64,000 nt of DNA, taken from Chloroflexota bacterium. Lineage in GTDB: Bacteria; Chloroflexota; UBA6077; JACCZL01. Positions 54,340 to 54,828 of this stretch are shown here, piece after piece. The stretch covers positions 396,029-460,028 of the forward strand of contig JAUJPG010000001.1 of NCBI GenBank assembly GCA_030447245.1, read 5' to 3'. Position 1 is the first letter of the stretch. Each line of letters begins with the position of its first letter. The translations under genes and the position numbers were made by a program. The notes under the pieces were generated by a model, which did not search any database, was not told the origin of the DNA, and saw nothing but the letters and a program-made list of their open reading frames with translations.

Positions 54340-54828
54340 ATGTCAGAGCCGTTCGAGTACGTCTCTTATGCCCGCCTCGAGTATCACGGAGGCCGCCGCC
54401 AGGCCTACCTGGGCGAGGTGGCAGAGCCGGTGACCTACGGGGTGCAGGGCGCTCTTCGCGAGTACTACGGGGCCAGGGAGGGCCCGCCGGTCGCCTCGAC
54501 CCTGGACCACATGGTCGCCGCCATCGCCGGTTGAATGTACGGCACGCTTGCCGGTGCCCTGTCAGGGCGCAAGATCCCGTTTGACCGCGATCGGTTCGCA
54601 GCCACCGTCGATGGCCGGATCGTTGGCATCGGCAGGACGATCAAGATCGAGTCGGTCGCCGTACACTACGATCTCGCGGTGCCCCCCGAGCACCGCGAAG
54701 CCGCCGAACGCGCCCTTCGGATCCACCCGGAGGGCTGCCCGGCCCACCAGAGCGTCAAGGACGCCATCGCCATCACGTGGGATGCCACGTTACGCCTCGG
54801 CGATCAGGTGGTGCAGGTGAGCGAATAG
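54340..54828 (+). CDS. Candidate selenoprotein: OsmC-like protein with in-frame UGA (Sec) at codon 65
   Basis: 54340..54534 and 54535..54828 are one frame: ...DHMVAAIAG(UGA)MYGTLAGALSGRKIP...HPEGCPAHQSVKDAIAITW. UGA sits at the first OsmC Cys position. Hairpin GCCCU-GUC-AGGGC lies 54556..54568. Confidence 0.75.
54556..54568 (+). promoter_or_regulatory. Candidate bacterial SECIS element for the OsmC-like gene
   Basis: GCCCTGTCAGGGC: 5-bp stem, loop GTC starting 27 nt after the UGA with G first; outer CTTGC/GCAAG helix (54547..54551 / 54569..54573). Confidence 0.6.

What the first reader, a model, noticed from the sequence alone, without database searches (positions are those of the whole stretch)
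54340..54828. Second candidate selenoprotein: OsmC-like protein with UGA at the catalytic Cys position
Seen: ORFs 54340..54534 and 54535..54828 are contiguous and in frame across TGA 54532..54534: DHMVAAIAG-U-MYGTLAGALSG...HPEGCPAHQSV. OsmC/Ohr proteins use two redox cysteines; the UGA falls on the first (AAIAGC-type motif) while the second (EGCPAHQS) is a normal Cys. Hairpin GCCCU-GUC-AGGGC at 54556..54568 has its loop 27 nt after the UGA with G first, plus an outer CUUGC/GCAAG helix, fitting the bSECIS rules. As I recall, OsmC-like selenoproteins have been noted in metagenomic selenoproteome surveys.
Basis: partly seen in the sequence, partly recalled or inferred. Interest (0 to 1): 0.85.

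Follow-up and report, generated by a model that had tools for sequence, protein, structure and literature searches.

The report
Selenocysteine OsmC protein, unannotated subfamily
This uncultured bacterium encodes a small stress-defence protein of the OsmC family with the rare amino acid selenocysteine at its reactive site; the UGA codon for it is read as a stop in databases, so the gene and almost all of its relatives are annotated as two broken pieces.

Summary
Observation confirmed, interpretation supported. Window 54340-54828 reads through TGA 54532-54534 into one 162-residue OsmC-domain protein (PF02566). The TGA sits in the first (peroxidatic) Cys column; the second Cys is C133. In 399 genomes of the same phylum (probably Chloroflexota), 38 carry a relative and 35 have TGA at exactly this residue; two Rokubacteria do too. 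An actinobacterial-type clade, one genome of the phylum and two database proteins have Cys there. Both flanks of the TGA are under purifying selection. A 7-bp hairpin, 26 nt after the UGA with loop GUC, meets the published bSECIS rules. It is paired in 224 of 224 cells over 32 distinct UGA sequences, one pair taking five forms, and it is absent from the Cys relatives. The genome has SelA, SelB, tRNA-Sec(UCA) and a Sec-containing SelD. The subfamily fails the existing OsmC selenoprotein model NF041052 (22 bits, cut-off 95), whose Sec nevertheless lies in the same column. Of 120 nearest database proteins, 116 start right after the UGA. Peroxidase chemistry is inferred only. In passing: the same genome has another OsmC with UGA at the other, resolving Cys, conserved across the phylum.

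The parts
54330..54334 (+). Ribosome-binding site GGAGG, 5 nt before the start codon
   Evidence: sequence
54340..54828 (+). osmC-type selenoprotein gene, 162 codons with UGA65 read as Sec, stop TAG 54826-54828
54532..54534 (+). UGA (Sec) codon, residue 65, at the peroxidatic Cys column of OsmC
54554..54570 (+). bSECIS hairpin, 7 bp, loop GUC 54561-54563, -10.1 kcal/mol
54736..54738 (+). Codon of C133, the second (resolving) Cys
   Evidence: invariant; matches the second Cys of OsmC 1ukk
54842..55516 (+). Neighbour: haloacid dehalogenase type II (TIGR01428), 13 bp downstream; pairing not conserved in relatives
55536..56816 (+). Neighbour: PrdB/GrdB-type selenoprotein with in-frame TGA 56058-56060 (start codon uncertain)

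Best explanation
The gene encodes a selenoprotein of the OsmC/Ohr fold. SelB with Sec-tRNA(UCA) binds the hairpin 26 nt downstream and decodes UGA65 as selenocysteine. Residue 65 lies in the central helix at the place of the peroxidatic Cys of OsmC and Ohr; C133 is the resolving Cys. Most likely the selenolate attacks an organic hydroperoxide, the selenenic acid is resolved by C133 as a selenenylsulfide, and a dithiol (dihydrolipoyl, as in Ohr, or another thiol) reduces it. Shown by sequence evidence: one gene, conserved UGA, covarying SECIS, complete Sec machinery, OsmC fold. Inferred: Sec insertion in vivo, substrate, reductant and the catalytic helpers R20 and D56.
For: OsmC domain and fold: model pLDDT 86, best PDB matches all OsmC/Ohr. 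UGA at the first Cys column against solved OsmC proteins. TGA at this residue in 35 of 38 member genomes of the phylum and in two Rokubacteria. Cys at that column in P0003, P0007, L032-L038 and L074. dN about 0.15-0.2 while pS is 0.5-0.8 on both sides of the TGA. SECIS hairpin covariation 224/224 with five pair types at one pair, absent in Cys relatives. SelA, SelB, SelD with Sec, tRNA-Sec UCA in the genome. 34 of the 35 UGA genomes have SelA, against 322 of 399 overall, Fisher p 0.004.
Against: No read-through, protein or Se-labelling data. One genome with the UGA form (G113) shows no SelA (MAG, 95% complete). One relative (L073) has TGG at the codon and two database proteins have Trp there; L073 also has a broken N-terminus and a damaged hairpin, so it looks decayed, and the two database proteins may be TGA read by code 4. 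The Ohr catalytic Glu is replaced by an invariant Asp. Genome context is not conserved, so it gives no functional hint.
Confidence: 0.92

Rival explanations
1. Two separate genes, or a truncated protein plus an internal re-initiation product starting at ATG 54535 right after the stop.
For: TGA is followed directly by ATG in this clade, and databases annotate it so: 116 of the 120 nearest proteins start there, and about 29 of 32 N-terminal matches end at the TGA.
Against: The split cuts the central helix of a single domain. No ribosome-binding site before ATG 54535. In the larger related clade the codon after TGA is CTG, CTC, CTT or TTG, mostly not a usual start. Cys homologues are continuous.
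Confidence: 0.03
2. Sequencing error or decaying pseudogene; the true codon is TGC or TGT.
For: The metY/metX region just upstream is broken across frames in this assembly.
Against: The same TGA in dozens of independent genomes with saturated synonymous change and purifying selection on both sides; the SECIS hairpin accompanies the TGA and is lost with Cys.
Confidence: 0.01
3. UGA is read as Trp or another standard residue (local recoding or near-cognate read-through).
For: Trp at the column in P0002, P0005 and L073.
Against: The genome uses TGA as a normal stop elsewhere (annotated ORFs), has the full Sec set, the residue aligns with the reactive Cys, and a bSECIS is conserved.
Confidence: 0.02
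4. It is a selenoprotein but not a hydroperoxide reductase; the Sec-Cys pair serves another thiol redox reaction, as in the poorly known YhfA-like OsmC proteins.
For: The subfamily scores far below the Ohr and OsmC equivalog models; the catalytic Glu is replaced by Asp.
Against: Both redox residues and an Arg and an acid in the right regions are conserved.
Confidence: 0.35

Closest known systems
OsmC-like selenoprotein of the Sargasso Sea and GOS surveys / NCBIfam NF041052 OsmC_like_Se
   Same: OsmC domain, Sec in the same alignment column, second Cys kept, same phylum also holds it (17 of 251 genomes over cut-off, all with TGA)
   Different: Motif FULLTQ (UxxT) against GU[ML]xGT (UxxxT) here; this protein scores 22.4 bits against a cut-off of 95; both families occur side by side in G061 and G092
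Ohr and OsmC organic hydroperoxide reductases (for example X. fastidiosa Ohr, T. thermophilus OsmC 1ukk)
   Same: Fold; peroxidatic and resolving residues in the same places (PMC5962072)
   Different: Sec instead of Cys at the peroxidatic site; invariant Asp56 where OsmC/Ohr have the catalytic Glu region; below the Ohr/OsmC model cut-offs

Membership tests
OsmC superfamily (PF02566) | Score over the curated cut-off | tested here: met
   34.3 bits against 27.5; fold match to OsmC/Ohr
OsmC superfamily (PF02566) | Two redox positions, first in the central helix, second after the third helix | tested here: met
   U65 in helix 54-76, C133 after helix 116-132
Bacterial selenoprotein | In-frame UGA aligned with Cys or Sec of homologues and conserved | tested here: met
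Bacterial selenoprotein | bSECIS: loop 3-9 nt, stem 4-16 bp, G in the first two loop positions, 16-37 nt from UGA, MFE at most -7.5 (PMC13188914) | tested here: met
   loop 3, stem 7, G first, 26 nt, -10.1 kcal/mol; covariation
Bacterial selenoprotein | SelA, SelB, SelD and tRNA-Sec in the genome | tested here: met
Bacterial selenoprotein | Sec present in the protein | not testable with these tools
   needs expression and mass spectrometry or 75Se labelling
NF041052 OsmC_like_Se | Score over the curated cut-off (95 bits) | tested here: not met
   22.4 bits; relatives 17-22 bits
NF041052 OsmC_like_Se | Sec column | tested here: met
   column 70 in both families
Ohr/OsmC peroxiredoxin equivalogs (TIGR03561, TIGR03562) | Score over cut-off | tested here: not met
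   no match at E 1 or better for P0001; relatives far below cut-off
Ohr/OsmC peroxiredoxin equivalogs (TIGR03561, TIGR03562) | Organic hydroperoxide reductase activity | not testable with these tools
   biochemical assay needed

The most novel reading that the evidence does not exclude
Selenocysteine has entered the OsmC active site in at least three separate subfamilies within one phylum, at either half of the redox pair: at the peroxidatic site (this gene and NF041052) and, in the same genome, at the resolving site (L003-type), so one organism carries a U-C and a C-U version of the same enzyme fold.
Probability: 0.75. Interest if true: 0.6.

Novelty: new variant of a known kind. Interest (0 to 1): 0.5.

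Why it matters
It adds a well-supported OsmC selenoprotein subfamily, in which most sampled members use Sec, that current models miss and that databases store as broken halves. It suggests that Sec is a regular choice for peroxide defence in this phylum, and together with the resolving-site family in the same genome it gives a natural test of what Sec does at each half of a thiol redox pair.

Tried and rejected
Viral contigs held no relative. Rfam has no matching RNA family at the SECIS. PDB search with the single protein found nothing; the profile was needed. Gene context was tested and is not conserved. The bSECIS-rule scan with free position is not discriminating in GC-rich DNA (best rule-stem p about 0.15); only the fixed-position hairpin and its covariation are. 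First guess of the organism as Rokubacteria was dropped: the proteins of G003 and G013 (same order as the window) equal database proteins P0083 and P0081 named Chloroflexi bacterium.

Full report
Observation. ORFs 54340-54534 and 54535-54828 are contiguous and in frame across TGA 54532-54534; reading TGA as Sec gives a 162-residue protein. GGAGG at 54330-54334 precedes ATG 54340; nothing similar precedes ATG 54535.

What it is. The joined protein is an OsmC-domain protein (PF02566, 34.3 bits, cut-off 27.5). A profile of the family matches solved OsmC proteins and puts residue 65 on their first Cys and C133 on their second (1ukk, 2onf). The AlphaFold2 model (mean pLDDT 86) has residue 65 in the middle of the central helix and C133 just after the third helix; the best PDB matches are OsmC and Ohr.

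Conservation of the UGA. Among 399 genomes of the same phylum, 38 carry a relative; in 35 the codon at this residue is TGA. The others are a Cys form (L074), a TGG form with a broken N-terminus and damaged hairpin (L073) and a frame-broken copy (L075). Two Rokubacteria contigs also have TGA (L030, L031). Cys is found in an actinobacterial-type clade (L032-L038) and in the database proteins P0003 and P0007. Against nine relatives, synonymous sites are near saturation (pS 0.47-0.85) while dN is 0.14-0.23 on both sides of the TGA, so the downstream part is translated in this frame as one gene with the upstream part.

SECIS. A hairpin G(U/C)GCCCU-GUC-AGGGCGC at 54554-54570 lies 26 nt after the UGA: stem 7 bp, loop 3 nt, G first, -10.1 kcal/mol, within the published bSECIS limits (PMC13188914). 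In 32 distinct UGA sequences all 224 base-pair cells are standard pairs, and the pair at columns 27-35 appears as GC, CG, AU, GU and UG. Three genomes of one genus have a 9-bp (or interrupted) stem shifted by 3 nt, with loop GUU or similar (L053-L055). The Cys relatives have no such helix at this place. The per-sequence synonymous-resampling p is only about 0.01 (window clade) to 0.05 (larger clade) and the sequences are related, so the covariation and the Sec/Cys contrast carry the argument.

Machinery. The genome has selA and selB side by side (C73:190475-192960), tRNA-Sec with anticodon UCA, and a SelD that itself has an in-frame TGA at the usual place. SelA is present in 34 of the 35 UGA genomes and in 322 of all 399 (Fisher p 0.004); the background is high, so this is only supportive.

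Relation to what is known. OsmC-like selenoproteins with motif UxxT are known from the Sargasso Sea and GOS surveys (PMC1088965, PMC2398784), and a recent review lists a single OsmC row (PMC13188914). NCBIfam NF041052 (OsmC_like_Se) matches that motif (FULLTQ) in this phylum: 17 of 251 genomes over cut-off, all with TGA. Its Sec shares the column of U65 here, but the present protein scores 22.4 bits against a cut-off of 95, has the motif GU[ML]xGT, and both families co-occur in G061 and G092. So it is a sister subfamily, not a member. Databases split it: 116 of the 120 best homologues begin exactly at the residue after the UGA, and nearly all N-terminal matches end at the UGA. No source name in those lists calls any of them a selenoprotein. 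Papers behind subscription, and the newest groundwater survey of a deep-learning predictor, could not be read, so an earlier listing is possible.

Mechanism. By analogy with Ohr (Cys61, Cys125, Arg19, Glu51; PMC5962072), U65 would reduce organic hydroperoxides and C133 would resolve the selenenic acid. R20 (nearly invariant) and D56 (invariant) are candidate partners. This is inference: there is no activity, expression or substrate evidence, and the gene's neighbours (a haloacid dehalogenase and a PrdB-type selenoprotein) are not conserved next to relatives.

Organism. Proteins of two genomes of the same order are identical to database entries named Chloroflexi bacterium, so the phylum is probably Chloroflexota.

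Noticed in passing
L003:1480-1893 minus strand (own genome, contig C119); relatives L096-L115: A second OsmC gene in the same genome has Cys at the first site (SACGVGL) and in-frame TGA at the second, resolving site (QHUPLYRAVAVAT). 25 of 30 member genomes in the phylum have a TGA; in the 17 parsed it is at that site with a conserved hairpin GGUCGC-CGUG-GCGACC about 20 nt downstream; Cys forms lack it. No NCBIfam model matches above cut-off.
   Followed up: partly
window 55536-56816: PrdB/GrdB-type protein with in-frame TGA 56058-56060 (LLTPTUPLCSHTCG), two genes downstream: a selenoprotein neighbour.
   Followed up: partly
window 51364-54314, minus strand: Cys/Met-metabolism PLP enzyme and an alpha/beta hydrolase (metY/metX-like) are broken across several frames: frameshifts in the assembly or pseudogenes.
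   Followed up: partly
L073 (G302): A relative with TGG at the Sec codon, broken N-terminus and damaged hairpin; P0002 and P0005 also have Trp there. Could be decay, or TGA translated by code 4 in the database.
   Followed up: partly
L053, L054, L055: One genus keeps the UGA but its SECIS stem is shifted by 3 nt with loop GUU; in L055 the stem is interrupted.
   Followed up: partly
L080 and L048 (G278): Two nearly identical copies of the gene lie about 21 kb apart in one genome, one with GUG and one with GCG at the start of the SECIS stem.
   Followed up: no
L038: A record titled Bifidobacterium breve carries a Thermoleophilia-type Cys form: probably a mislabelled MAG contig.
   Followed up: no
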